Below, piece by piece: positions 276 through 16,386 of a stretch of DNA of 25,726 nucleotides. The notes beneath the pieces are model-generated. The model was not told the DNA's origin and did no database searches. It saw only the letters and a program-made list of their open reading frames with translations. Origin of the DNA: a virus. The stretch covers positions 1-25,726 of IMG/VR virus record IMGVR_UViG_3300030116_004137, one strand, 5' to 3'. Positions within the stretch are counted from its first letter, which is position 1; every line of letters starts with the position of its first letter. Both the position numbers and the translations under genes were made by a program.

Positions 276-1901
276 GTGGCGGTTTTAAATTTAAAAAGTT
301 TTGGAGGAATAGCACCAATTGTTCCTCCTAGATATCTTGAAGAAACCCAAGCGCAAACAGCATTAAACTGTCCTGTATTTCAAGGTAGTATTCAATCTCT
401 TTCTGATCTTGGGAGTTCTGTTGCAACTCTTGATAAGTCCGGCACTATCCAAAGTATTTATAGATTCGGGCAAGATACATTATCTGATAGTCAACATTGG
501 TTTCATTGGACAACCGACGTCGATGTTGCGCGCAGCCAAATCGCAGGCGACACCTCTGAATGGACTTTTTTTACTGGTGACGGTATTCCTAAAGCTACAT
601 ATGCAGCTATTGGTACATCGGGCGGTACAATGCCAACAGTATCAAGACCGTTAGGATTACCTGCACCTACTACAGCTGTAACAGCTACAGCAAATTCATT
701 TTCAAACACTAACGAAACAAAAGAAACACGTGTTTATGCTATGACTTTTGTAAATAAAGAATCAGGGTTTGAGTTTGAATCTGCTCCTTCTCCTGCATCA
801 AACTCTGTTGACGTATTTACGGGTCAAACAGTTGAACTAACAAATTTTCCTGCTGTTCCCGGAGGTGATTACATTGTTAGTCACCGTCGTATCTATCGTG
901 CTGTAGCAGGAGTATTTTTGTTTGTAGCAGAAGTAACTGTTGCAACATCTTCTTTTACCGACAACGTTGCTGCAGATTCTCTTGGAGAAGAACTACCTTC
1001 ATTGTTTTACACACCACCTCCAGCTGGATTGAAGGGTCTTATAAATTTACCAAATGGAATATTAGCAGGGTTTAACGGAAGAGATGTTTTCTTTTCTGAT
1101 CCGTACAAACCTTATGCTTGGCCCGAAAGTTATATCCAGACTTTAGATTTTCCTGTTGTGGGGCTTGGGCGTATGGATACAACACTTGTTGTACTTACAA
1201 AAGGCACACCATATTTTATACAAGGGACGCATCCTAGTAATATGGCAGTAGTTAAATCTGATCTTGAGCAAGCCTGTGTGTCTAAAAGAAGTATTGTTAG
1301 TTTGATGGGAGGGGTTTTATATGCGGCTCCTGACGGGCTAATGTTTCTATCAGGTGGGGGATCAAGGATAGTTACTGAAAATTTATTTGATTTTTCTCAA
1401 TGGCAAACATTTTTTGCGCCAGCTTCAATTCATGCGTACCAGCAAGATAATCAATATATTGGTTTCTACAATAATGGATCTACTTCAGGAGGGTTTATTT
1501 TTGATGTAAGAAGTGGGCAATTCATACTACATGACATCTATGCTAATGCAGGATACCACGATCTTTTAGCAGACAAATTATACGTAGCTGTAGTTGACAG
1601 CGGAAATAAAATAAAAATTTTTGGAGATGGTAGTTCAAAAACATATACATGGAAGTCTAAGAAATTTACAATGCCGCAAATTATGGGGTTTTCATGCGCG
1701 CAGTTAGAAGCAGAAGCTTACCCAATGACGTTGAAAGTTTATGCAGATGGTGCGTTAGTTCATACGCAAACAGTCCAAAGCAGAGATCCATTTAGGCTTC
1801 CTTCTAAAGTAGGACGTGATTGGGAAATGCAGATAGAAGGTTCTAATGAAGTTTTTGCATTATCAGTTGCAAATTCAATGTCGGAGTTAGCAGGTGTCTA
1901 G
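276..1901 (+). CDS. Probable tail nozzle / tail tubular protein (T7 gp12-like)
   Basis: A 541-aa protein that starts at GTG 276 with a strong ribosome site (AAAAGGAGG, 263-271). Its N-terminus has the pattern GGIAP-x-x-PPRYL...Q...A.NC....GS...L, which resembles the start of podoviral nozzle proteins such as T7 gp12 (Gly-Gly-Ile-Ser-Gln-Gln-Pro then an Arg, a Gln and an Asn-containing block). The rest is beta-rich with repeated Gly-Gly and short hydrophobic strands, including FNGRDVFFSDPYKP and ALSVANSMSEL, consistent with a propeller-like virion protein. No signal peptide or membrane segment is seen. It is shorter than T7 gp12 (about 790 aa). It overlaps the next gene by 8 bases. That it is a virion structural protein is fairly secure; the nozzle role is inferred from the N-terminal pattern and gene order. 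Confidence 0.5.
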   Translation: MAVLNLKSFGGIAPIVPPRYLEETQAQTALNCPVFQGSIQSLSDLGSSVATLDKSGTIQSIYRFGQDTLSDSQHWFHWTTDVDVARSQIAGDTSEWTFFTGDGIPKATYAAIGTSGGTMPTVSRPLGLPAPTTAVTATANSFSNTNETKETRVYAMTFVNKESGFEFESAPSPASNSVDVFTGQTVELTNFPAVPGGDYIVSHRRIYRAVAGVFLFVAEVTVATSSFTDNVAADSLGEELPSLFYTPPPAGLKGLINLPNGILAGFNGRDVFFSDPYKPYAWPESYIQTLDFPVVGLGRMDTTLVVLTKGTPYFIQGTHPSNMAVVKSDLEQACVSKRSIVSLMGGVLYAAPDGLMFLSGGGSRIVTENLFDFSQWQTFFAPASIHAYQQDNQYIGFYNNGSTSGGFIFDVRSGQFILHDIYANAGYHDLLADKLYVAVVDSGNKIKIFGDGSSKTYTWKSKKFTMPQIMGFSCAQLEAEAYPMTLKVYADGALVHTQTVQSRDPFRLPSKVGRDWEMQIEGSNEVFALSVANSMSELAGV

Positions 1902-4326: not shown

Positions 4327-4668
4327 ATGGCGTATAAAAGAGAATTTATTGTTACTAAAGTATATAAAGTAGAAGAATTTGCTAGGTTTCCAAATGTCAT
4401 TGTTCGTATAGAAGCTTATTGGAAAATTACAAATGATCAGCACCCAAAAGGTTTTAAAAATTACGATTTGAGCAAAGATATTAATTACGTTTGTAGCAAT
4501 GATACGTTTATAGATATTGATAAAGTAACAGATGCAGACCTTGAAAAGTGGTTGACTAAAGATATGACAACACAAGATATACTTGATATTGAAATAGATT
4601 CTCAACCAGAACTTATACGTACAGACATGATGGATAGTTGGATAGTACATTATGATAGAAATGCTTAA
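4327..4668 (+). CDS. Hypothetical protein (113 aa)
   Basis: ATG 4327 follows a clear ribosome site (TTAGGAGAACAA), and the gene sits 8 bases after the previous stop in the same direction. The protein is mixed alpha/beta and Lys/Asp-rich (MAYKREFIVTKVYKVEEFAR...), with no recognised domain. Its C-terminal half has an acidic helix (DADLEKWLTKDMTTQDILDIEID). A reading frame on the opposite strand covers almost the same bases; the + strand version is preferred because of its ribosome site and its place in the operon. Function unknown. Confidence 0.65.
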   Translation: MAYKREFIVTKVYKVEEFARFPNVIVRIEAYWKITNDQHPKGFKNYDLSKDINYVCSNDTFIDIDKVTDADLEKWLTKDMTTQDILDIEIDSQPELIRTDMMDSWIVHYDRNA

Positions 4669-4721
4669 ACTTTTTCTAGTTATTGAACTGTTAACGCGTT
4701 AGTATGTTGGAGATATTTTTG

Positions 4722-4886
4722 ATGACGCAACTTATGATTCAGGAAACACAACAAGAAGATGTGATGTATATGAATAAATTACCTCCCTATATGCCGCCTC
4801 CGCTTGATCGCCCTGACATGTGGAGCTGCACACGACGACCAACGCTTTGTTTGAAAGGAGAAGAGGATGGCTCGCAAGAGAGATAA
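4722..4886 (+). CDS. Candidate small proline-rich protein (54 aa)
   Basis: An in-frame ATG at 4704 exists, but ATG 4722 has the better ribosome site (TTGGAG, 4707-4712, nine bases upstream), so I start it there. The product has Met/Gln-rich first residues, a proline cluster (LPPYMPPPLDRPDMW) and two Cys in a basic C-terminal half. Its last 20 bases overlap the next gene, whose ribosome site (AAAGGAG) is inside it. No family is recognised. Support is only the ribosome site, the spacing and the filling of an otherwise empty 200-base gap, so it could be spurious. Confidence 0.4.
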   Translation: MTQLMIQETQQEDVMYMNKLPPYMPPPLDRPDMWSCTRRPTLCLKGEEDGSQER

Positions 4887-5151
4887 TATGCCAAAGCGCA
4901 ACAAAAAGAACTTCCGTCCTACTAAAGCAGGTGCGGGAATGACACGAGCGGGTGTTGCTGCATACAGGCGTAAAAATCCCGGCTCTAAACTCCAAACAGC
5001 AGTAACGGGTAAAGTAAAACCGGGAAGTAAAGCGGCTAAAAGGCGTAAATCATTTTGCGCAAGATCAGCAGGACAGATGAAAAAGTTTCCAAAAGCAGCA
5101 AAGAATCCTAATTCTCGTTTACGACAAGCAAGAAGAAGATGGAAGTGTTAA
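4867..5151 (+). CDS. Small basic conserved protein (94 aa), DUF6321-like
   Basis: Strong ribosome site (GAAAGGAG) before ATG 4867. The protein is extremely rich in Lys and Arg and carries the block KAGAGMTRAGVAAYRRKNPG, then SKLQTAVTGKVKPGSKAAKRRKSFCARSAGQM, ending RRRWKC. From memory this block recurs almost verbatim in proteins of marine phages and metagenomic contigs annotated as DUF6321. The function is unknown. High positive charge and co-location with three more basic small proteins suggest nucleic-acid binding, perhaps packaged with the genome or acting on host DNA. It is the first gene of a four-gene cassette. Confidence 0.8.
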   Translation: MARKRDNMPKRNKKNFRPTKAGAGMTRAGVAAYRRKNPGSKLQTAVTGKVKPGSKAAKRRKSFCARSAGQMKKFPKAAKNPNSRLRQARRRWKC

Positions 5152-5168
5152 CATAAGAAAGGGTTGTC

Positions 5169-5345
5169 ATGGCTACAAAGAAGAAAAAATCTACTAAGAA
5201 AAAATCAGGAGCAAGACCAACAAATCCTGCGTTATACGCAAGAGTAAAAGCTGAAGCTAAACGTAAGTTCAAGGTCTATCCATCAGCTTACGCAAACGGG
5301 TGGTTGGTTAGGACGTATAAGCAAAGAGGAGGAGGGTACGCATAA
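5169..5345 (+). CDS. Small basic protein (58 aa), conserved marine-phage type
   Basis: ATG 5169 follows GAAAGGG at a good distance, and the stop TAA overlaps the next start (TAATG at 5343-5347). The first 15 residues are nearly all Lys, Thr and Ser. The core reads RPTNPALYARVKAEAKRKF, then KVYPSAYANGWLVRTYKQRGGGY. This core resembles small proteins I recall from marine phages and large DNA viruses (variants of KFxVYPSAYANxWLVxxYKxRGG). No enzyme motif is present. A DNA- or RNA-binding role is plausible from charge alone. It is part of the cassette 4867-5775. Confidence 0.75.
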   Translation: MATKKKKSTKKKSGARPTNPALYARVKAEAKRKFKVYPSAYANGWLVRTYKQRGGGYA

Positions 5346-5632
5346 TGGCAAAGCCTTCTGGTGGATTAAAAGCTTGGTTTGGTAAAGGGCCCAAAGGTGA
5401 CTGGGTTGATATTGGTGCGCCCAAGAAAAACGGTAAGTACCAACCTTGCGGGCGTAAATCTGCTAAAAAGTCTAAGCGCGCTTACCCAAAGTGTGTCCCA
5501 AGAAGTAAAGCAGCTTCAATGACTAAAGCTCAAATCAAAAGCGCAGTATCAAGAAAACGATCAAAAGCTCAAGGAGTTGGAGGTAAACCAACAAATGTTA
5601 AAACTATTGTTAAAAGAAAGAGGAAGAAGTAA
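5345..5632 (+). CDS. Small basic protein with GLKAWF / DWVDI / PCGR / YPKCVP motifs (95 aa)
   Basis: Very strong ribosome site (GAGGAGGAGGG) and one-base overlaps with both neighbours. The motif order GGLKAWFGKG, KGDWVDIGAPKK, YQPCGRKSAKKSKRAYPKC and VPRSKAASMTKAQ matches a conserved small family known, as I recall, from marine phages, some bacteria and nucleocytoplasmic large DNA viruses; it may be the one called DUF5872, but I am not certain of the label. Two Cys (in PCGR and PKCVP) are conserved in that family. The C-terminus is a string of Lys and Arg. Function is unknown; nucleic-acid binding is inferred from charge. Confidence 0.8.
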   Translation: MAKPSGGLKAWFGKGPKGDWVDIGAPKKNGKYQPCGRKSAKKSKRAYPKCVPRSKAASMTKAQIKSAVSRKRSKAQGVGGKPTNVKTIVKRKRKK

Positions 5633-5775
5633 TGCCATATTCTAAGTATACTCCAAAACAAAAAAGACTTGCTGCAATGTACGGAAACAAAAAGAAAATA
5701 ACACGTGGTGATATAATTGCAGCAGCAAAAAAGAAGAAAACTGGCGGAAAAAGTGGAAAGACTAAGAAAACATAA
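5632..5775 (+). CDS. Very small basic protein (47 aa)
   Basis: The start overlaps the previous stop by one base (TAATG) and has an AGAGGAAG ribosome site inside the preceding gene. The product begins MPYSKYTPKQKRLAAMYGNK, then KITRGDIIAAAKKKK, and ends in Lys/Gly/Thr. I recall similar small proteins (MPYSxYSPKQKxLA...) beside the previous family in marine phages. Function unknown. It closes the four-gene basic cassette. Confidence 0.7.
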   Translation: MPYSKYTPKQKRLAAMYGNKKKITRGDIIAAAKKKKTGGKSGKTKKT

Positions 5776-5826
5776 AATGATTGTCAAATTACAGTCTAAT
5801 ATGATAACGTGTGATCAGGAGTAGTT

Positions 5827-6291
5827 ATGTCTACATCTCGATTAATATTTGATGATAAATATCGAGTTGGCGAATGGGTAGCCGAGCAGATGTCTGATGG
5901 CGCAAATTGGCATGATTACTACGCTATGGGCGCTGAAACTAAGGGCGATATAGTAAGTGGCATCGTATTTGAGAATATGAATGGTCATAATGCAAACGTC
6001 CACATTGCAGTCAGCAAACCCACCAAATTGTTTTTAGAGCTTTTAGATCACGCTTTTATTTACGCGTTTCAAGATTGTGGGCTTCAAAGACTTACAGGAT
6101 TGGTGGAAGTTGATAACACTAAAGCACTCCACCTAGACATACACATTGGGTTTCGTATTGAAGCTATAATGAAAAACGCCGGATCGTCCGGTCAAGATCT
6201 GTTAATACTCGTGCTTTGGCCCGAGAACTATATGAGAGGAAAGCGATTATGGGAAAAAATACCGTCCAAGCTCCCGACTACGCTCCACTAG
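5827..6291 (+). CDS. GNAT-fold protein in the T7 gp13 position (154 aa)
   Basis: Ribosome site CAGGAG six bases before ATG 5827. The C-terminal half carries GNAT-type signatures: a strand ending in a conserved aromatic/Leu block followed by FQDCGLQRLTGLVEVDNTKALHLDIHIGFRIEA, which matches the acetyltransferase motif A-B region (Arg-Leu-x-x-x-Val-x-x-x-Asn...GF). T7 gp13 and its counterparts in other podoviruses, 130-160 aa and encoded just before the internal core proteins, are also GNAT-related. That length and order match here. I infer a role in internal-core assembly or ejection rather than metabolism, but true acetyltransferase activity is not excluded. The last 43 bases overlap the next gene. 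Confidence 0.65.
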   Translation: MSTSRLIFDDKYRVGEWVAEQMSDGANWHDYYAMGAETKGDIVSGIVFENMNGHNANVHIAVSKPTKLFLELLDHAFIYAFQDCGLQRLTGLVEVDNTKALHLDIHIGFRIEAIMKNAGSSGQDLLILVLWPENYMRGKRLWEKIPSKLPTTLH

Positions 6292-7268
6292 CGGAAGCAT
6301 CTGCAGAAGCTGCGCGTATTCAATCAGAATTAGGGCGTGAACAACTAGCGTTTGCACGAGATCAATACGAACGAACAGCCCCAATGCTTGAAAGTATCGC
6401 TAACCAACAGATGCAAGCTCAAGCAGAACAAATGGATCAAGCTAGAGACTATTACAATTACCAAAGAGATGTTTTTCGCCCTCTTGAAAGATCAATTGTT
6501 CAAGACGCTCAAGATTTTAATACAGAAGCTTATAGAGAACAGTTGGCAAGTCAGGCTGCAGCCGATGCTGGACGGGCATTTGGTATCTCACAACAACAGA
6601 ATCAACGAGCTATGGCAGCAATGGGGATAAACCCCAACTCTGGTAGGTTTGCAGGAATGCAACAAGCCGCTGGTTTACAACAAGCAGCTACTCGAGCAGC
6701 AGCTATGACAGGAACTCGACGACAGGCAGAACAAATGGGATATGCTAGACAATTAGATGCAGCAGGACTTGGTCGTGGGTTAGCAGGAGCATCGCTTGGC
6801 GCATACGGCGGAGCAACAGGTGCAGGCTCAGCAGCAGGACAAAGTGCTCAATCTGCAGGGCAAAACTTTATGGGCAATATGGCACTTGGAGCAAACACAA
6901 TAGCTACTGGTCAAAAAATGAACTTGAGCGGGCTGAGTAACATACTCAATAACCAAACTAAAACTTACATCAATACATCAGGAAGTCTTCTAGGCGATAT
7001 TGGTGGAGCTCTTGGTGGAGCAGCTTCTGTGTATAGTGCTTTTTCAGATAGACGTATGAAAGAAAACGTAAAAGAAGTTGGAGTTGACCAACGCACAGCA
7101 TTAACACTTTATGAGTTTAATTATATTGGCGATACTACTAGACGATTTCGTGGCGTAATGGCTGATGAGGTTGAACTTGTCTATCCAGAAGCAGTTGAAG
7201 ATACAGATTTAGGTTTCAAAGCTGTTCGATATGATCTCTTAGGAATTGAGTTTAAGGAGGTAGCGTAA
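6249..7268 (+). CDS. Internal virion / ejection protein with C-terminal S74 intramolecular chaperone domain (339 aa)
   Basis: ATG 6249 is chosen over an upstream in-frame TTG at 6216 because AGAGGAAAG lies just before it. Residues 1-125 form a long Gln/Ala/Glu-rich coiled coil (LAEASAEAARIQSELGREQ). Residues 125-235 are Ala/Gly/Gln/Met-rich with small-residue runs, as in podoviral core proteins of the T7 gp14 class. From Ser266 there is a clear Peptidase_S74 domain: SDRRMKENVKEVG, LYEFNYIG, RRFRGVMADEVELVYPEAV, VRYDLLGIEF. S74 domains normally sit at the end of trimeric tail fibres, help folding, and cut themselves off near the Ser-Asp. Position two in a gp13-16-like block supports an internal protein. 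The domain pairing is unusual. Confidence 0.7.
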   Translation: MGKNTVQAPDYAPLAEASAEAARIQSELGREQLAFARDQYERTAPMLESIANQQMQAQAEQMDQARDYYNYQRDVFRPLERSIVQDAQDFNTEAYREQLASQAAADAGRAFGISQQQNQRAMAAMGINPNSGRFAGMQQAAGLQQAATRAAAMTGTRRQAEQMGYARQLDAAGLGRGLAGASLGAYGGATGAGSAAGQSAQSAGQNFMGNMALGANTIATGQKMNLSGLSNILNNQTKTYINTSGSLLGDIGGALGGAASVYSAFSDRRMKENVKEVGVDQRTALTLYEFNYIGDTTRRFRGVMADEVELVYPEAVEDTDLGFKAVRYDLLGIEFKEVA

Positions 7269-8818
7269 TGGCACGTAAATCACCGTGGCAGGAATTTGCT
7301 GATAACTTTAACAGTGTTTATGGCACATTTCAAAAAGTTGGCAGAGATATAGAAACCTCTCGTCTTATGGACGACGAAAAGTTTACAGCTGAAGGAGGGT
7401 TAGGTTTTGGGCTGGAGGGTGATGAGCTAGAAAAAGCACGATATAAGGCTCTTGGGGATGTATACACCAAATATGGGCAACCAGATAAAGGTCTAGCAGT
7501 TCGACAGTCACTTGCAAATTTAGAAGCAAAAGAAAGAGAAAATGTACTAAACAGAGCTATTTTAAACGAACAAATAAAACAAAGAGGAATTCTTGCGACA
7601 GCACTAGCAAACGCAAATATTGGTAATGTTCGAGCAAATACTGCTAACACTCAATCTATAACAAGTGAACGTGACGCGTTATTACCGGGCAAATTAGATC
7701 AACAATCCGCAACTCTTGATAGCACTAGAGCTGGTACTGCAGATACGATATCCCAAACTAAAAGACGTAATGAGTTATTGCCGGGTGAATTAGAGTCACA
7801 AGGTTTAAGTATCGATGCACAAGAAATAGCTAATAGAAGCGGCGAACTAGCAAATATAATGGATACACAAAAAATTGAAGCGGCAAACAGGCTTGTTGGG
7901 TTTCAAAAAATAGAAGATGATATAATTACATTAGTTAACAGCGAAAAGTATCGAAAAGATAACAATATAAACACCGTTGAAGAGGCACAAGCAGCTACTA
8001 TACGTTTGTACGAAAATGCTAACTTACCTCCAGAGCGTAAAGCTGCTGTTATAAAAACTATAAACGAGTACGGTCTTGATAAACTACAAAAACTTGCAGC
8101 TAAAACTGCGGCGGAAGCTAATATCGCGCTACAAAAAAACGGATTGCCGGGCTTAATTAAGTACTATGATAAAGTTGATGATGGTGCTGCTACATCATTA
8201 GAGTTAAAAGGAAACGAAGAGTCAGGTTTTACTCTTGTAAGAAAAGATGGAGATTCTGAATCTGTATTGTTTCGAGGGGCAAACGAAGCCGAAATAGAAG
8301 CTCAGTTGTCATCGCAGATTCAAAAACCCGGCACTGGGTTACAAGTTGCAGCTGATATACTAGCTAATAGACAAACTAAAGTAGGTATTAGTGCAGCTGA
8401 AAAAGGAATAGAAAAACTTGATGCGCAGATAAATAGTATCGAGGTAGGTATAGAAGCTCAAGAACTGGCAAATGACGTTGCTAAAATGAACGCACTATCA
8501 AAACAAAATCAGTTAATAGCAAGCACTGAACTTGCACAAGCACAAGCTAAAAAGATACTGCAACAGGTTGAAAGAGAAAAAGGCTTGACGTGGAATGATA
8601 TGAAAGCAAGAGAGGCTTTTAACAAATTTTTAACAAGTGACGATTATAAAGTGATAAGAGATGATTTTGGAGAAGATACTGTTGGACTTCAAACTTACAC
8701 AAATACAATACGATTAAATCTTGGTTTAATAAGCCAACCTCCAGCCGGTACTCCTCTTGAGGATTGGTTGAGTCTTAGTGATTCACAAAGAGAGCAAATA
8801 ATTGCAGCAGGTAATTAG
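7268..8818 (+). CDS. Internal virion protein, coiled-coil (T7 gp15-like position, 516 aa)
   Basis: Strong ribosome site (AAGGAGGT, 7254-7261) and a one-base overlap with the previous stop. The product starts MARKSPWQEFADNFNSVYGTFQKVGRDIE and is almost wholly alpha-helical, with many Ala, Glu, Gln and Lys. It has internal near-repeats: ERDALLPGKLDQQSATLDS (about 138-156) is echoed by RRNELLPGELESQGLSIDA (about 166-184). No catalytic motif is recognised. Long helical proteins directly upstream of the largest virion gene are typical of the T7 gp15 ejection protein. Assignment is by position, composition and length, not by sequence identity. Confidence 0.6.
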   Translation: MARKSPWQEFADNFNSVYGTFQKVGRDIETSRLMDDEKFTAEGGLGFGLEGDELEKARYKALGDVYTKYGQPDKGLAVRQSLANLEAKERENVLNRAILNEQIKQRGILATALANANIGNVRANTANTQSITSERDALLPGKLDQQSATLDSTRAGTADTISQTKRRNELLPGELESQGLSIDAQEIANRSGELANIMDTQKIEAANRLVGFQKIEDDIITLVNSEKYRKDNNINTVEEAQAATIRLYENANLPPERKAAVIKTINEYGLDKLQKLAAKTAAEANIALQKNGLPGLIKYYDKVDDGAATSLELKGNEESGFTLVRKDGDSESVLFRGANEAEIEAQLSSQIQKPGTGLQVAADILANRQTKVGISAAEKGIEKLDAQINSIEVGIEAQELANDVAKMNALSKQNQLIASTELAQAQAKKILQQVEREKGLTWNDMKAREAFNKFLTSDDYKVIRDDFGEDTVGLQTYTNTIRLNLGLISQPPAGTPLEDWLSLSDSQREQIIAAGN

Positions 8819-8820
8819 TA

Positions 8821-11800
8821 ATGAACGAGGCGCAACGTCAACTTTTTGAACAGTTTAAACAGGAAAACCAAGCAACAGTAGCTTCTATCTATGATGAAGA
8901 TGAAGATGATTCTGAACAGGGCGGTTTAAACAGAGAACAAAAACAACTGTTCAAACAGTTTATTGAACAGCGTGAAGGTCAAAAAAGAAGAGCTCAGATT
9001 GAGTCAAATACTCCAACAGGGCTTATTGATACAACTTACAACACTGTTCGTCGAGGGCTATCTAGGTTAGCAAACATACCAAATGTTATGATGACGGAGC
9101 AGTTCTCTGAACTTGCATCAGCTGAAAGAAAAAAAGAAGAGGAAGATGCCCGACTTGCCGCTGAAGGAAAAGAACGACCTTGGTGGTACAAAGCACTGTC
9201 GTGGCAAAGAGAAGGGGCTAAAAATACAGCTGATGAACTAGACGCATTAGCAGCAGATAAAGCAAAAGATGTTATTGAAAGGGAACTTTATACGCAAGAA
9301 AATTTTCCTATGTCTGAGTCTGCAAGGAAACAGTTAGAAAAAATAACATCGACGGATAAATTTTTTGGGCAAGAAGGTGCTATAGTACAGGCCCTTTCTG
9401 ATCCGTTAGCTACAGCTTCAGGAGCTCTTCAAGTTGCAGGAGAACAGATACCTACGCTTGCTGCCGTTCTAGTAGCAGCAAGAAAAAGTCCTAAACTAGC
9501 AGCATCAGTGATGGGGAGTTCTACTTTTCTTCAAGAAAGATTTGGACAACTTGTTTCAGAAGCGCAAGAAGCAGGGTATGATTTAAGTAACCCTGAACAA
9601 GCTCTTGCTGCTGTAAAAGATAAAGATTTTATGGCTGCGCAAGCGGATAAAGGTTTTACCCGTGGATCTATTATTGCAGCAACTGATTTAATATTTCTTG
9701 GTTTAGCTTCAAGAGCAAAATTTAACTTAAAGGGCATAGGAACTCAAACAGGAGTACAGGCTCTTGGCGGTGGTACTGGTGAATTTTTAGCGCAAGTTGC
9801 ATCAGGAGATGAAATTTCACCGGGAGATATTCTTATTGAAAGTTTAGCAGAGGGTGTAAGCGCTCCTGTTGATGTAGCTGCATTTGGTCTTAAAAAAGCT
9901 AGTGAAACGTTGAAAACTAGCCAAGGTACTGAAAACTCTGAAACTAGAATATCACCAGACGAGACTGAGTTGTTTTCAGCTCAAGATTTAGAAGATTTAC
10001 AAAATAAAAATGATGAAGAAGACGCAAAAGCTGCAGCCCTTTCTGAAGAACAGATGTTGGAGCAAGCTCGTGCTCGTATGCAAGCTGCTAAATCGTTTAT
10101 ATCTGACGAAAATTTTTTTAAACAAAGAAATCAAAAACGCAAAAATGATGCTTTGAACCCACAAACAGAGATTGGTAGAGCGTACGAACTATACAAAGCA
10201 AGATTACAAAAGTATCCTACTACACAAAAAGCGGAGAATGCTCTTCTCGATAAATTTTTAAAAAGTTTTATACCAAAAAACGATAAGGACGTTGCTATTG
10301 AAGAGTACAATACTGCTTTAGATGCTCACGCATCAGCTATTGCTGCTGGCACAATAACACCTGTTGATAATGATGCTAGAAGAACAAAACCAAAAACTGA
10401 AACTACTCCTGTTGAAACCACTACTGAAACAACTGAAACAACTGAAACACCTGTTGTTGAAACAACTGAGGTAAAACCTCCTAAACCCGAAGGAAAAGTT
10501 GTAGCTGCTCAACGTGCATACGCTGAAGAAAAACTTGGGGAAAATTGGGAAACAGTTGGTGGGTTATCTCAAGCATTTGAAAATAGAACTGGTTTTTACA
10601 AGAAAGATAAAAACGGTAAAACTGCGTTTCAAAACCGAGTTGACGCAGAAGTTGCTGCCAGGGACGAAGAAACGTCAACGGCAGCAGAGCCAGAAACTAA
10701 TGAAGCACAAGCTGATACTACTGCACTAACACAGCAAGATGTAAAAGATGTAGTGAATATCAGAGGACTATCTAAAGACCAAAAGAAAATATTTGATGTA
10801 TTATCTGATCATTTTTTCGGCGATAAGAAATTTGATATAGATGATGTGTATGCAGGAGGTAAGTTTCAACCTACTAAAATTGCAGAACTTGCAGGAGTTA
10901 AAAGCAAACAGGCTGTTAGCACTACAATAAATAGATTTCGCACTAAAATAGCGCAGGAAATGGGGATAATCCCAGAAAATGCAACCGCTGAACAGAAAAA
11001 AGAAGGGTTGAAATTAATTGGGGAACGTCTTTCAGCATTAGCTCAAGCTAGAAAAGCACCTGCTAGAACTGCTGAAACTGCTACAACTGATGAGTTAGCA
11101 GATACACAAGATGTAGTTGATCAACGTCCGGATTCGGATGAAGTTACCGACGATGACGTTGCTGATAATTCTATTTTTCAACAACAAGGGATAAGCACTA
11201 TAGCTTCTGTAGGACAAGGAGCGTTTACTGGTGTAAGCAAAGAAGATGTAGAATACACAAAAGCTCGATCAAATGAACCTGATCAATACGAGAGCAAAAG
11301 GCAAGAACTTGCTGACAAGACTCGAGCTGAACAAAATATTCAAATGGTTCAAACTTATGGACAAGAAGCTATAGCACAATGGAGAAGCACAAGGTCAGAG
11401 GGTGCTGTAGACGTAAGAGATCTCAGTAAAAAAGATTTACTTGAGTGGATTACTGTAGTTGAAGAAAATCGTGTTGGAGAAATTTCTGATTCTCAAATGC
11501 GACAAGAACAAAGGGAGATAGAGAAGAGATATGACGCAGAAACTAAACAACCAAGGGTCAACGAAGTACAAGCTGCCCGGGCTGTTGAAGGCCCAGAAGG
11601 CAGGGATACAACTGAACAAAGCGGAACTCAGGATAATCGAGAGACACAGCCCCAAGAAGGCGACCCAGACAGCTTCACCGCAGTCGAAGACCAAGCAGGA
11701 AAAGTAAAAGTTGAGTCTAAAAAACCAAAACGTCGCTTTTCAGTTGTACCTGATGACGTTGACCCTTTTGCAGAATTACAACAAGAAACTGATGAAAAAG

Positions 11801-14800
11801 AAGCAAACTTTGAGCAGGTTCTCAAAGATTTAACAGGCAAGAACACTAACTGGAGAGTCAAAACTTTTAGAGATGTTGGCGATATGATAGCCGCCCGACT
11901 CAGAGGAGACATTGATGTTGATGTGCCTAAAGAAAATTTTTACGCATTTACTCAACCAAATGATAAAGGCGTTCCAGTTACTTACGTAATTTTAGATAGA
12001 ATACCAAAAGGACGTGAGCGTGGTGTATTTTTACACGAAGTTGGAGGGCATCAAGGTCTTGATGATTTTATTTCTTTAGACGAACAAGCAAAACTAGGGG
12101 AAAGAATTAAAGAGTTTGCAGACAAGAATGATAACTCAATTGAAAGTGTTGTAGCTAATAGAGTTTTAGATAGAATAACAAGAGCAACCTTAGAAGTACC
12201 AGAAATAGAAACTAATAAAGAATTACAAAATAGTGAACTTATTGGGTATTTTCTTGAAGAAGCAACATTTGCAGGCGTTGAACCAAGTGTTCAAACACCA
12301 ATTGGTAGATTAGTACGCGATCTTTATGCTTTATTTAAAAGAGCGTTACGAAAAATCAACATGAATATTGACGCCATGACTGCCCAAGACATTGTTGATT
12401 TAGGTTGGGGAGCAGCACGGTTTAGTCTGTCAACGCGTAAACATGGTACAGCCGCTAGTTTTCAAAAGTTTGACCATAGATTTATGAGTAAAGGAGAAGG
12501 AGCTCAAGCGTACGGATGGGGAAGTTATCTTGCAGAAAGATTCGGTGTTGCTAGATTCTATCTACGAGCTGATGAAAGTAGAAAAACAGAAGCACAAGCA
12601 AAAGAAGATCCTGACAATCCTGAAAATTTTAAACTTTTTCTTTCTGCCCTGCCGGAACCATTACAGACAATATTACGAAACCCACCAAACAGTGTTGTAC
12701 GATCAGGCGCTATTTTTACAGATGATAGAGATGTTGCAACTCCAGAACCCGGAGTTAATTTACCAAAACCTCATCTAGTCTTTGATGGAAAACGAGGTAG
12801 TTATAGAGTTAAATACCCTAATCGAAGTGGTACTCAAATGATAACTAAAACAAGATTTGGCAAACCACTTACATTACAAACTATACTTGTAGAGGCGAAT
12901 AAGGGTTTTAGTTTAATACCTTTTAAACGTAACGATACAGCTAAAGCATTTGACCAAAAAAGAGATCTTTTACAACTTGCGCAAAAAGAATATAGAGCAG
13001 TTCAAGATGCTAATCGTGTTGAAGGCAGTTTTATGCACGTTGACACAACAGTTGCGGATGAAGAATTATTGCCTTGGGTTGATTTCGTTGGAAGCAATTC
13101 TCAAGTTAAAGATGCAATTGTTAAACTAATAAATGGAATGGAAAATATTGATATCTTTAGAATTCTTGAAGAAGTAACAAATAAAAATCAATTACCTAGC
13201 ACAAACAGAGAAAAAACTGTGCTTGATAAAGAAATAAATATATTAAAAGAATTAAGAAAACAACATGATGAAGCTTTTGATAAGTTAGATACAGGAGTCT
13301 ATGAAGGAATTTTAGATGTTTCAAAGCAATTAAATATTCCTGATGATCTTGTTTCTAATATAATGGATACAGTTTCTGGAGAGTCTTTATATTGGGCAAT
13401 GACGCAGTACAATTATATTACTGGACGACCCTATACTTATCTTACTGAAGAACAACAAATAAAATTACTTGATGCCCCCGAAGCTATACGTCCTGACCAA
13501 GTAGTATCTTTGCTTCTTGATAACGCAGGCGTTAAAGGAGTTATTTACCCAGATGCAGGTACATTAGGTAATTTTGCTCAAGATTCTGAAGGAATGGCTA
13601 ACAATGTAGTTATTTTTAACGAAGATAATCTTTTTGTAGTCGGCACAACTCCCGGCAAACAAGTTGGTAATAAGAAGAACAGAGTTGCAGAAATAAAATT
13701 TAGTATATCTGACGATCACGTAGATAACTCATATGGTAGTAAAGCAAAGGACGCTTTCATTGAAGCTAAAGAAATTGCTAGACAGGGTGCAGCATCAGCT
13801 GAATTTTTGCATCAGGTTATTCGACGAGTGCGAGAAAAGATGCCATCTTTGGGTCGATGGTATGAAGGAATGCTTAAAATTGACCAAACTCGTACAGAAA
13901 TAAGAAAAAGTTTTGAGGGTATTGCGTTACGAGCACGTGCCTTAAAACCTGAAAGACTAGCTCTACTCAACGACTTTTTAGGCAAATCAACATTCTTTCA
14001 AAAATGGGGGTACGACCCTGAAATAGATGGAAAAGAAGTTACAGTTGATCCTGTTTTTGAAAGGGCGTTTAACAAGCTGACTTCCGAAGAACAACAGATT
14101 GCCAAAGATGTATTCGCGCATGGTGAAAAAATGCGTTTACGAAAAATTGAAATAGCAAAGAAAGCTGGTGTGGAAGGGAAGTTTTTTACAGATGCTGCAC
14201 TGCAAGGGCCTTATGCTCCACTAAAACGTTTTGGTTCTTACGTAGCTGTCCTCAAATCACAACAGATGAAAGACGCAGAAGATGCAAGAAATGCAGAAGG
14301 TGCAACAAAAGAAGATAGAGAACGCTACAACAAACTAAGCCAAGATCCAAAGCATTATGTTGTAAGCTTTTTTGATACGTTTTCCAGAGCTAAAAAATTT
14401 ACGGATTCTAATCCACAATACAAGTTTAGAAGCGCTACAAAAAAAGCACCTGACCCTGATGAGGGCAGAGTATCTAACCCACAAGTATTTGAAAAGATTC
14501 TTGGTGCTTTGAATGCAGGTGAAGACTCAAATATAGATGGGCAAGCAAAACAAGCTTTTAAAAAGTTAGTACAAGACCTTTATTTTCAATCATTAGACGA
14601 ACGCAATGCTAGATTGTCAGGGTCAAAACGATTGAATCGTGCAGGATACGAAAAGAATATGATACGTTCTTTTATATCTCACGCTAAAGCAGAAGCAAAT
14701 CTTATCGCACAAATGGAAAATGCTGCAGAAGTTAATACTGCGTTTGCTGAAGCTGAGAAAGAAACACGCGTTGATGGTGTAAGAGATAAAGAAAGAAGTG

Positions 14801-16386
14801 ATGCTTTTGCGTTAGTCGCAGCTCATTATAGGCGCAACTTGAAAGGCGATGAAACACCAATACAAGACAGAATAAATGCAGCAAACTCTGTTTATATGCT
14901 TTTAACAAGTGTTGGTTATCATGTTACAAACGCTACACAGCCAACAATGGTTACTGTTCCAAAAGTTGCAGGTGATTTTGGTGATTATTCAGGTGCGTGG
15001 AATGGGCTTCTTAAAGGTTACAAACTAGCTATGGAGTTGGTAAGTATGTCTGCGCAAATGGAGACAAATGTTGATACCGACAGCGCACCTCCTGAATATA
15101 GAGATCTTCTGAAACGAATGGAGTTATCTCAATTACTTGACGTAGGTATGGAAGAAGACTTAACAAGTTTTGAACGATTTGATACTGGTTTTGATACGCT
15201 AAATGTAGCTACTGATACTCTTGGAAAAACAACACACAAATTGTATCAAGTTTCACGTTTAGTTGAAGCTGTTAATCGTATATCAGCCGCTATATCTGCT
15301 TTTGACATGGCAAAAAAGTATCCTGAACGAATTAGCGATATGAAGATGTCAGCTGAAGAATATGCTGTTTCTGTTGTTGAAGATACACAAGGTAATTTTT
15401 CTAGTTTAGATGCGCCTTTGTTAATCAAAGCTCTACCAAAAGTAATAACTCAATATCGTAAATATCAATTACTCATGGCTTGGCATTATTCAAGCGCATT
15501 CAAACAAATGTTCAAAGGAGAAACGGCACAATCAAGAGCCGCAGGCAAACGTATTTTAATGTACTCACTTGCTCATGCAGGTATTTTTGCAGGATCAGTA
15601 GGTCTGCCTTTATCTTCTACTTTGTTCTGGCTAGCAACATTTCTAGGAGATGAAGATGAACCTCAAGATCTTGAGCGTTGGATAAAAAAGAATATAGATG
15701 ATGGTTTATTTGGAGATGTTCTTTCAAGAGGTGTGCTTGGATTAGTAGGTATTGATTTGAGTGCTAAATTAAGCCAAAACAAAATTTTTCATCCACTACC
15801 TTACGTAGATTTTCAATTAGGTGAAGCTGGTTGGAAAGAAATAATAGCAGGGTCTGTAGGGCCTGCCGGAACCACAGCGGGTAATTTTTTTAGAGCAGCA
15901 GAATATTTCGCTCAAGGAGACGCAATAAAAGGTATTGAATACATGGTTCCCAAAGGCATACGAAGTGTACTAGAAAGCTATAGATTAGCTACTGAAGGCT
16001 ACACAATGAGAAACGGTGATATAGTTGTAGACCCTAGAGAAATAAGCGGGCTTAGTATCTTTTTAAATTCACTAGGTATTCCCGGCTCTGATATTCAAAA
16101 AATAAAATGGACAAGAGGGCAACAATTTGAGCTTGAACAATATTTTAGTAAACAAAGCGGAAGACTACGTAAGTCATATATTGAAGCATATAAAAATAGA
16201 GATACTGATTTAATGAGTGATTTACGTGGTGAATGGAAAGATCTTCAAAAAGCAAAAGACCGTGTTCGACCTTTCTTTAATGACGCGCCGGGAGTTTTAA
16301 ACAAACAACCAGTTTCAGACTTAATTAAAGCACCACGAGAACAAAGAAAAAGAGAGAAAAAAGCTAGAAGAAAGTTTGGTAATTAA
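8821..16386 (+). CDS. Giant polyvalent / ejected virion protein: zincin-like, ART-PolyVal, PLxRFG-type regions (2,521 aa)
   Basis: Starts two bases after the previous stop. Regions in order: duplicated QRQLFEQF / QKQLFKQF motif (about 4-47) around an acidic stretch; hydrophobic Ala/Gly-rich region (about 190-365); coiled coil, then a Thr/Glu-rich linker (about 526-552); HTH-like segment (about 686-717); low-complexity acidic region; zincin-like motif LHEVGGHQGL with His1072, Glu1073, His1077 and a downstream ELIGYFLEEA (about 1140-1148); ADP-ribosyltransferase-type domain beginning HGTAASFQKFD (His1208), GEGAQAYGWGSYLAE (1225-1239) and ending GVKGVIYPD...NNVVIFNE (about 1571-1605); PLxRFG signature PLKRFG (1800-1805); C-terminal helical region with a membrane-like segment (about 2245-2278). 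This matches phage polyvalent proteins and tail-700/PLxRFG proteins. It sits where T7 has gp16. Ejection into the host is inferred; no lytic transglycosylase motif was seen. Confidence 0.8.
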   Translation: MNEAQRQLFEQFKQENQATVASIYDEDEDDSEQGGLNREQKQLFKQFIEQREGQKRRAQIESNTPTGLIDTTYNTVRRGLSRLANIPNVMMTEQFSELASAERKKEEEDARLAAEGKERPWWYKALSWQREGAKNTADELDALAADKAKDVIERELYTQENFPMSESARKQLEKITSTDKFFGQEGAIVQALSDPLATASGALQVAGEQIPTLAAVLVAARKSPKLAASVMGSSTFLQERFGQLVSEAQEAGYDLSNPEQALAAVKDKDFMAAQADKGFTRGSIIAATDLIFLGLASRAKFNLKGIGTQTGVQALGGGTGEFLAQVASGDEISPGDILIESLAEGVSAPVDVAAFGLKKASETLKTSQGTENSETRISPDETELFSAQDLEDLQNKNDEEDAKAAALSEEQMLEQARARMQAAKSFISDENFFKQRNQKRKNDALNPQTEIGRAYELYKARLQKYPTTQKAENALLDKFLKSFIPKNDKDVAIEEYNTALDAHASAIAAGTITPVDNDARRTKPKTETTPVETTTETTETTETPVVETTEVKPPKPEGKVVAAQRAYAEEKLGENWETVGGLSQAFENRTGFYKKDKNGKTAFQNRVDAEVAARDEETSTAAEPETNEAQADTTALTQQDVKDVVNIRGLSKDQKKIFDVLSDHFFGDKKFDIDDVYAGGKFQPTKIAELAGVKSKQAVSTTINRFRTKIAQEMGIIPENATAEQKKEGLKLIGERLSALAQARKAPARTAETATTDELADTQDVVDQRPDSDEVTDDDVADNSIFQQQGISTIASVGQGAFTGVSKEDVEYTKARSNEPDQYESKRQELADKTRAEQNIQMVQTYGQEAIAQWRSTRSEGAVDVRDLSKKDLLEWITVVEENRVGEISDSQMRQEQREIEKRYDAETKQPRVNEVQAARAVEGPEGRDTTEQSGTQDNRETQPQEGDPDSFTAVEDQAGKVKVESKKPKRRFSVVPDDVDPFAELQQETDEKEANFEQVLKDLTGKNTNWRVKTFRDVGDMIAARLRGDIDVDVPKENFYAFTQPNDKGVPVTYVILDRIPKGRERGVFLHEVGGHQGLDDFISLDEQAKLGERIKEFADKNDNSIESVVANRVLDRITRATLEVPEIETNKELQNSELIGYFLEEATFAGVEPSVQTPIGRLVRDLYALFKRALRKINMNIDAMTAQDIVDLGWGAARFSLSTRKHGTAASFQKFDHRFMSKGEGAQAYGWGSYLAERFGVARFYLRADESRKTEAQAKEDPDNPENFKLFLSALPEPLQTILRNPPNSVVRSGAIFTDDRDVATPEPGVNLPKPHLVFDGKRGSYRVKYPNRSGTQMITKTRFGKPLTLQTILVEANKGFSLIPFKRNDTAKAFDQKRDLLQLAQKEYRAVQDANRVEGSFMHVDTTVADEELLPWVDFVGSNSQVKDAIVKLINGMENIDIFRILEEVTNKNQLPSTNREKTVLDKEINILKELRKQHDEAFDKLDTGVYEGILDVSKQLNIPDDLVSNIMDTVSGESLYWAMTQYNYITGRPYTYLTEEQQIKLLDAPEAIRPDQVVSLLLDNAGVKGVIYPDAGTLGNFAQDSEGMANNVVIFNEDNLFVVGTTPGKQVGNKKNRVAEIKFSISDDHVDNSYGSKAKDAFIEAKEIARQGAASAEFLHQVIRRVREKMPSLGRWYEGMLKIDQTRTEIRKSFEGIALRARALKPERLALLNDFLGKSTFFQKWGYDPEIDGKEVTVDPVFERAFNKLTSEEQQIAKDVFAHGEKMRLRKIEIAKKAGVEGKFFTDAALQGPYAPLKRFGSYVAVLKSQQMKDAEDARNAEGATKEDRERYNKLSQDPKHYVVSFFDTFSRAKKFTDSNPQYKFRSATKKAPDPDEGRVSNPQVFEKILGALNAGEDSNIDGQAKQAFKKLVQDLYFQSLDERNARLSGSKRLNRAGYEKNMIRSFISHAKAEANLIAQMENAAEVNTAFAEAEKETRVDGVRDKERSDAFALVAAHYRRNLKGDETPIQDRINAANSVYMLLTSVGYHVTNATQPTMVTVPKVAGDFGDYSGAWNGLLKGYKLAMELVSMSAQMETNVDTDSAPPEYRDLLKRMELSQLLDVGMEEDLTSFERFDTGFDTLNVATDTLGKTTHKLYQVSRLVEAVNRISAAISAFDMAKKYPERISDMKMSAEEYAVSVVEDTQGNFSSLDAPLLIKALPKVITQYRKYQLLMAWHYSSAFKQMFKGETAQSRAAGKRILMYSLAHAGIFAGSVGLPLSSTLFWLATFLGDEDEPQDLERWIKKNIDDGLFGDVLSRGVLGLVGIDLSAKLSQNKIFHPLPYVDFQLGEAGWKEIIAGSVGPAGTTAGNFFRAAEYFAQGDAIKGIEYMVPKGIRSVLESYRLATEGYTMRNGDIVVDPREISGLSIFLNSLGIPGSDIQKIKWTRGQQFELEQYFSKQSGRLRKSYIEAYKNRDTDLMSDLRGEWKDLQKAKDRVRPFFNDAPGVLNKQPVSDLIKAPREQRKREKKARRKFGN

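What the first reader, a model, noticed from the sequence alone, without database searches (positions are those of the whole stretch)
8821..16386. 2,521-aa polyvalent protein in the T7 gp16 slot: a candidate ejected toxin/effector
Seen: an ART-PolyVal-like block (His1208, GEGAQAYGWGSYLAE 1225-1239, closing GVKGVIYPD about 1571), a zincin-like motif, an HTH-like segment and a PLxRFG signature in one chain, encoded last in a gp13-gp14-gp15-like row. Known: polyvalent proteins of phages and conjugative elements carry ARTs and peptidases thought to disarm host defence or reprogramme the host. Inference: this phage delivers these activities with its DNA at infection. The combination and order of domains may be new.
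Basis: partly seen in the sequence, partly recalled or inferred. Interest (0 to 1): 0.78.

Follow-up and report, generated by a model that had tools for sequence, protein, structure and literature searches.

The report
Phage giant protein carrying swappable ADP-ribosyltransferase
A phage gene encodes a 2,521-residue protein, probably injected with the phage DNA, in which an enzyme that tags host molecules with ADP-ribose sits in an exchangeable slot next to a built-in peptidase, and the repeated short sequences around that block look like the sites where the peptidase cuts it free.

Summary
The 2,521-aa ORF, the ART blocks, HEVGGH and PLKRFG are all at the stated places. Only the HTH stays unproven. 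The ART is real: direct Pfam is sub-threshold (10.7 bits), but a profile built from unrelated ART-PolyVal domains hits the segment at E=7.9e-24, HHalign gives probability 100, and Foldseek finds viral ART-PolyVal models. The triad H1208-Y1236-E1601 is kept (30/30, 30/30, D/E in 29/30 aligned sequences). The tail is NCBIfam tail-700/PLxRFG (201.5 bits, cutoff 100). The ejection-gene order recurs in 41-49 of about 65 relatives. The concept (polyvalent proteins with ART and HExxxH zincin, probably injected) was published in 2017, so this is a known kind.

New here: (1) The ART lies in an exchangeable slot between zincin and tail. In 61 non-redundant proteins the slot holds a GEG-type ART (35), another ART (2), other cargo (8) or nothing (16). 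(2) A motif, [KRQ][FY][SG], recurs about 90 aa before HExxxH and just before the tail. The two sites switch S/G together, with different codons. Polyvalent proteins with HExxH zincins carry another junction motif ([FYNH]Q). I propose zincin-clade-specific cleavage sites that free a 74-kDa zincin-ART fragment. Cleavage and virion presence are untested.

The parts
8821..16386 (+). 2,521-aa polyvalent protein gene (P0001)
8821..11733 (+). N-terminal region, residues 1-971; conserved in family, no named domain
10765..10971 (+). HTH-like segment, residues 649-717; not confirmed by any profile above its cutoff
11734..11742 (+). junction motif site 1, R972-F973-S974 (KRRFSVV), 100 residues before H1072
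   Evidence: low pLDDT in model
11776..12417 (+). zincin-like metallopeptidase domain, residues ~986-1199
12034..12051 (+). HEVGGH (1072-1077), HExxxH active-site motif
12418..12426 (+). R1200-F1201-S1202 at the zincin/ART border; same triplet but not conserved at this border in relatives
12427..13656 (+). ART-PolyVal-type ADP-ribosyltransferase cassette, residues ~1203-1612 (H1208, Y1236, E1601)
13696..13704 (+). junction motif site 2, K1626-F1627-S1628 (EIKFSIS), just before tail
   Evidence: disordered in both models
13738..16377 (+). conserved all-helical tail, residues 1640-2519; tail-700/PLxRFG profile at 1796-2479
14218..14235 (+). PLKRFG signature, residues 1800-1805
7268..8818 (+). 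516-aa gene directly upstream (position of T7 gp15); no profile match, found next to the giant gene in 14 relatives
6216..7268 (+). virion/ejection-type protein (phrog_8003) with C-terminal Peptidase_S74 chaperone
5827..6291 (+). GNAT-type acyltransferase (phrog_4470), conserved neighbour
276..1901 (+). internal virion protein/stabiliser (phrog_511), shared with ~60-kb podophages

Best explanation
The gene encodes a virion-carried polyvalent effector of a short-tailed phage. It is made last in the ejection-protein row, packaged, and passed into the host with the DNA. Its ART domain transfers ADP-ribose from NAD+ to a host molecule early in infection. The HExxxH zincin cuts its own chain at two copies of one short motif (around 972-974, RFS, and 1626-1628, KFS; the exact bond is not known). 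This frees a 74-kDa zincin-ART fragment (about 974-1627) from the N-terminal part (107 kDa) and the PLxRFG tail (100 kDa). The slot between zincin and tail is an exchangeable cargo site. SHOWN by computation: domain identities, catalytic residues, conserved gene order, cassette exchange, the paired and co-varying motif, and its dependence on zincin clade. INFERRED: packaging, ejection, cleavage and its timing, and ADP-ribosylation of a host target.
For: ART: HMM of unrelated ART-PolyVals hits the window segment at 7.9e-24; HHalign probability 100, E 2.8e-44; 17/30 aligned sequences match PF18760 at E<=0.1, best 3e-6; Foldseek BFVD 13 hits E<=1e-3 including named ART-PolyVal proteins; triad H/Y/[D,E] conserved. 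Tail: NF032893 at 201.5 bits. Slot: gene order conserved; cassette tally 35/2/8/16; L171, whose GNAT and 6216-like neighbours are 83% and 75% identical, has no ART; other cassettes match MuF_C, LPD23 or another ART-PolyVal. Processing: [KRQ][FY][SG] at -100..-80 of HExxxH in 32/60 and at -40..-20 of the tail anchor in 36/61, background 4% per bin; S/G agrees at both sites in 31 of 32 proteins with switches in several lineages; codons differ between the sites and flanks are 33% identical, so selection acts on protein; HExxH-zincin proteins lack it and carry [FLYV][FYNHE]Q at -40..-20 in 16/24 against 5/74 for HExxxH; both sites fall in low-confidence linker.
Against: No experiment. The window ART is below Pfam's own cutoff (10.7 of 31.2 bits), and no PDB structure matches. 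Site 1 is not detected in about half of the relatives. The motif was noticed before the statistics were done, and relatives are not independent. The PLxRFG signature itself contains RFG, so the triplet is not unique to borders. The third catalytic residue is Glu here, Asp in most relatives. No sequence or fold link to T7 gp16 was found.
Confidence: 0.6

Rival explanations
1. Polyvalent ejected protein that works uncut: the zincin acts on a host or virion protein, and the F-[SG] motifs are only flexible or structural borders of the zincin and tail domains.
For: N4 virion RNAP and plasmid ArdC/TraC1 are transferred uncut although they carry such peptidases (Iyer 2017). Both motifs directly precede domain starts in the models, where conserved capping residues are plausible.
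Against: The two sites are not homologous in context (flank identity 33%), yet have the same motif and switch S/G together. HExxH-zincin proteins use a different motif at the equivalent border.
Confidence: 0.25
2. The motif marks recombination or cassette-exchange joints rather than peptidase sites.
For: Cassettes are exchanged at the site before the tail; one group has an ART flanked by PTPTVEAK repeats.
Against: Codons differ between the sites of one genome (15 of 29 identical; the window uses TCA versus AGT for Ser) and nucleotide flanks are near random. Several members without any cassette keep the motif.
Confidence: 0.07
3. The giant protein is a structural/ejection-tube part of the virion and the ART is a passenger or inactive relic.
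For: The ART is missing in 16 of 61 non-redundant family proteins and replaced in 8. No fold match to a solved ART.
Against: Catalytic H, Y and D/E are kept in 29-30 of 30 aligned sequences while the insert between the blocks drifts, as for an active enzyme.
Confidence: 0.08

Closest known systems
Polyvalent proteins of phages and conjugative elements (Iyer et al. 2017, PMC5512222)
   Same: Several unrelated activities in one chain, ART as a main enzyme, HExxxH zincin variant, injection with DNA proposed, autoprocessing proposed.
   Different: That paper's text names no processing motif (searches for 'linker' and 'conserved motif' gave 0 hits) and does not mention PLxRFG. The fixed cargo slot and zincin-clade-specific junction motifs are, as far as I could find, not described.
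Pfam PF18760 ART-PolyVal (Tox-ART-HYD2-like)
   Same: HGT and GEGxQAYGWGxY blocks, closing acidic block, H-Y-[D/E] triad.
   Different: ~400 residues because of a long insert between blocks; below the Pfam cutoff on its own.
NCBIfam NF032893 tail-700 / PLxRFG proteins; PHROG 10089 'DarB-like antirestriction' of ~60-kb podophages
   Same: Same C-terminal tail (201.5 bits; 2.1e-33) and related stabiliser protein (phrog_511).
   Different: Some of those records are annotated as DNA methylase or Snf2 helicase under the match; here the cargo is zincin and ART.
Phage T4 Alt
   Same: Works like it, if ejected: an ART carried in the virion and injected to modify the host.
   Different: Different ART family and a separate protein; membership not claimed.
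Phage P1 DdrB
   Same: Virion protein with C-terminal zincin, reported as processed to ~76 kDa (cited in PMC5512222); has LLKRFSYNPQ around 756, 116 aa before its HELGHH.
   Different: Cut site unmapped; a cut there would give 82.6 kDa, so only suggestive.

Membership tests
ART-PolyVal (PF18760) | Curated Pfam score cutoff | tested here: not met
   10.7 bits against 31.2; the unrelated reference member shown also falls short, 29.4 bits
ART-PolyVal (PF18760) | Profile-level homology to other ART-PolyVal domains | tested here: met
   HMM E 7.9e-24; HHalign prob 100; 17/30 aligned sequences hit PF18760
ART-PolyVal (PF18760) | Catalytic His, Tyr and third acidic residue | tested here: met
   H1208 30/30, Y1236 30/30, E1601 position D26 E3 A1
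ART-PolyVal (PF18760) | ART fold | tested here: met
   Foldseek viral library E 8.5e-7 and 3e-5 to named ART-PolyVal models, though these are predicted models; no solved structure
ART-PolyVal (PF18760) | ADP-ribosyl transfer | not testable with these tools
   needs assay
Zincin-like MPTase of polyvalent proteins, HExxxH clade | HExxxH and a downstream helix Glu | tested here: met
   H1072, E1073, H1077 and E1139 invariant in 30/30; variant described in PMC5512222
Zincin-like MPTase of polyvalent proteins, HExxxH clade | Match to MPTase-PolyVal profile (PF18818) or solved zincin | tested here: inconclusive
   1 of 30 aligned sequences at E 0.035; no significant PDB hit
PLxRFG / tail-700 (NF032893) | Curated NCBIfam cutoff | tested here: met
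   201.5 bits, cutoff 100
T7 gp16-type ejection protein | Position after gp14/gp15-like genes | tested here: met
T7 gp16-type ejection protein | Sequence or fold similarity to gp16 | tested here: not met
   no PDB match for the tail profile or model; so it is not filed as a gp16 homologue
Virion-ejected polyvalent protein | Presence in virion and transfer to host | not testable with these tools
   needs proteomics

The most novel reading that the evidence does not exclude
The zincins embedded in phage polyvalent proteins are sequence-specific self-processing peptidases, and each clade reads its own junction motif: HExxxH clades cut at [IVM][KRQ]F-[SG], HExxH 'FLHE[ST]GH' clades at [FLY][FYNH]Q. 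Phages can therefore exchange effector cassettes within a polyprotein by keeping the matching motif, much as viral polyproteins do.
Probability: 0.45. Interest if true: 0.8.

Novelty: new variant of a known kind. Interest (0 to 1): 0.57.

Why it matters
What the very common zincin domains of polyvalent proteins cut has been open since 2017. A paired motif that follows the peptidase clade turns it into one expression experiment with point mutants. If true, domain borders and released effectors could be read directly from thousands of uncharacterised giant phage proteins. The fixed cargo slot also gives a way to collect new phage effectors: whatever lies between the HExxxH domain and the PLxRFG tail.

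Tried and rejected
Direct Pfam scan of the whole protein: only sub-threshold ART. Single-sequence scan of IMG/VR with the zincin-ART region found no relative; alignments were needed. Foldseek of zincin+ART and of the tail against the PDB gave nothing at E<=0.001. Profile search of PDB sequences: nothing. HTH: best hits stay below cutoff, and one relative's sigma-70 region-4 hit (L170, 1e-4) did not align with the window segment. The idea that the motif is a general feature of all polyvalent proteins was rejected: 39 hits against 51 expected in 82 other GEGxQAYGWG proteins. The recombination-joint explanation was disfavoured by codons. The first S/G table had two wrong calls because a later RFG was picked; recounted. 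No paper found describes PLxRFG function, an ART-PolyVal assay or a zincin junction motif, in this open-access library only.

Full report
WHAT WAS CHECKED. The window is part of a 33.4-kb IMG/VR virus record. The ORF 8821-16386 encodes 2,521 aa, as reported. HEVGGH 1072-1077, HGT 1208, GEGAQAYGWGSYLAE 1225, GVKGVIYPD 1570 and PLKRFG 1800 are all present.

SURROUNDINGS. ORF 276-1901 is the internal virion/stabiliser protein phrog_511, shared with many ~60-kb podophages. ORF 6216-7268 is a virion/ejection-type protein (phrog_8003) ending in a Peptidase_S74 chaperone. ORF 7268-8818 has no profile match. Among about 65 relatives fetched from IMG/VR the order GNAT - 6216-like - (7268-like) - giant ORF, all on one strand, recurs: the 6216 homologue in 49, the GNAT in 41, the 7268 homologue in 14 (many loci are cut at the flank). 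So the 'T7 gp16 slot' is right as a position. No sequence or structural similarity to gp16 or any solved ejection protein was found.

TAIL. Residues 1796-2479 match NCBIfam NF032893 'tail-700, PLxRFG domain-containing protein' at 201.5 bits (cutoff 100) and PHROG 10089 'DarB-like antirestriction' (2.1e-33). The same tail ends giant proteins of podophages of Klebsiella, Erwinia, Rhizobium and others, some of whose records are annotated as DNA methylase or Snf2 helicase under the match. The model is nearly all-helical (pLDDT 73).

ART. A direct Pfam match is weak (E 0.95). I collected IMG/VR loci with GEGxQAYGWG (120 loci, read) and built two alignments: A6, the window's own family, and A5, 24 other polyvalent proteins of which 23 match PF18760. 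HHalign joins them with probability 100, E 2.8e-44. An HMM of A5 alone finds the window cassette at E 7.9e-24. In the 30-member alignment A3, H1208, G1209 and Y1236 are invariant, and the third catalytic position (E1601, in NNVVIFNEDN) is D in 26, E in 3 and A in 1. This is the H-Y-[D/E] arrangement expected of the Tox-ART-HYD2 group to which the polyvalent-protein paper assigns these ARTs. The AlphaFold model of 961-1679 (pLDDT 68) has no PDB match, but matches predicted viral polyvalent and ART-PolyVal proteins at down to 2e-10.

ZINCIN. HE[VIL]GxH is kept in all relatives aligned. This is HExxxH, the variant that Iyer et al. describe as a separate set of polyvalent MPTases.

CARGO SLOT. Relative L003 aligns to 57-638, 650-1231 and 1610-2519 of the window protein, with the last two pieces adjacent: the ART is simply absent. 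L171, whose GNAT and 6216-like neighbours are 83% and 75% identical to the window's, also lacks it. L239 is 52% identical over 1-1199 and then carries an unrelated segment of about 260 aa. Over 61 non-redundant family proteins (the window included) the segment between zincin and tail is a GEG-type ART in 35, another ART in 2, other material in 8 (MuF_C in L235, LPD23 in L181) and nothing or a short linker in 16. In a sister group with an HEMGH zincin, an ART-like segment before the zincin is present in L005/L006/L009 and absent in L007/L008, although L005 and L007 are 97.6% identical over the remaining 1,277 aa.

JUNCTION MOTIF. The triplet [KRQ][FY][SG], usually as [IVM][KRQ]F[SG][IVKL], occurs at two set places: 80-100 residues before HExxxH in 32 of 60 proteins, and 20-40 residues before the tail anchor in 36 of 61. 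The background is 4% per 20-residue bin. In the window these are KRRFSVV (972-974) and EIKFSIS (1626-1628). A third copy, AARFSLS (1200-1202), lies at the zincin-ART border but is not conserved there. Both conserved sites lie in low-confidence linker just before the first helix of the next domain. In proteins where both sites are found, S or G agrees at the two sites in 31 of 32 (24 GG, 7 SS, 1 SG). On a tree of the tails, S/S proteins fall in several separate places next to G/G relatives; the window is one, L140 another. The sites use different codons (15 of 29 identical at the third residue; the window has TCA and AGT) and their nucleotide flanks are 33% identical, so the match is kept at protein level.

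INDEPENDENT COMPARISON. In 82 other GEGxQAYGWG proteins the motif is not enriched (39 seen, 51 expected; a few members of the window family remain in that set). There many of the zincins are HExxH (FLHE[ST]GH), and a different motif, [FLYV][FYNHE]Q, sits 20-40 residues before the zincin in 16 of 24, against 5 of 74 HExxxH zincins. Another ART subfamily ends in QIKSAxGNxGxFDPxNP and continues either as NPDIRFSR or as NDPNILxQ. In ORFs found by scanning for these two strings, the accompanying zincin is HExxxH in 6 of 8 for DIRFSR, and HExxH in all 24 counted for NILxQ (Fisher p 3e-5). The counts include some near-duplicate contigs and the tests ignore kinship, so the p-values are guides only.

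MECHANISM. The simplest reading is that each zincin clade cuts its own chain at its own motif, and that the window protein is cut into 1-973 (107 kDa), 974-1627 (zincin plus ART, 74 kDa) and 1628-2521 (100 kDa). Phage P1 DdrB, a virion protein with a C-terminal zincin that is reported as processed, has LLKRFSYNPQ 116 residues before its zincin, but a cut there would give 83 rather than the reported 76 kDa. Whether the cut occurs in the head or in the host is open. The ART then probably modifies a host target early in infection, as T4 Alt does. That is analogy, not membership.

LIMITS. There is no experiment. The motif was noticed first and counted afterwards. Site 1 is not found in about half of the relatives. 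PLxRFG itself contains RFG, inside the tail. The HTH is unconfirmed. Literature was searched only in the open-access library.

VERDICT. The protein is a member of a published class. The exchangeable slot and the clade-matched junction motifs are the new and testable part.

Noticed in passing
L005, L006, L009 versus L007, L008: Near-identical sister proteins (97.6% over 1,277 aa) differ by a roughly 170-aa ART-like cassette lying between two PTPTVEAK repeats, before an HEMGH zincin: a recent gain or loss of an effector.
   Followed up: partly
L063, L099, L113 and other proteins with FLHE[ST]GH zincins: Domain borders carry ...IL[FYNH]Q or ...FYQ, often directly before HG[ST] of an ART or 20-40 aa before the zincin.
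   Followed up: partly
L157, L139, L155, L181: Proteins with extra cassette material carry an additional MKFG/MKFS copy inside the slot.
   Followed up: no
L297 (phage P1), DdrB residue 756: LLKRFSYNPQ lies 116 aa before HELGHH in a virion protein reported as processed.
   Followed up: partly
window 6216-7268: Virion/ejection-type protein ending in a Peptidase_S74 intramolecular chaperone domain, unusual outside tail fibres and spikes (recalled, not tested).
   Followed up: no
window 4867-5632: Two very basic small proteins (94 and 95 aa) between the fibre and ejection genes; the first is DUF6321.
   Followed up: no
window 5827-6291: GNAT-type acyltransferase kept directly before the ejection genes in 41 of about 65 relatives; possibly a virion-protein or host modifier.
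   Followed up: partly
L186, residues ~1460-1680: Cassette that looks like a GNAT acetyltransferase by eye; no Pfam match.
   Followed up: no
L002 8172-9347 and 11097-12116: Genes that look like a VWA protein and a MoxR-type AAA ATPase outside the window, reminiscent of the N4 gp24/gp25 pair (by eye and memory only).
   Followed up: no
L177/L236: Closest tail (74% identity) is split over two reading frames in the assembly; sequencing error or real break not examined.
   Followed up: no
L002 inside the DNA polymerase ORF 4570-6525 (window end): Four unread codons (XXXX in the translation): a scaffold gap at the end of the window.
   Followed up: no
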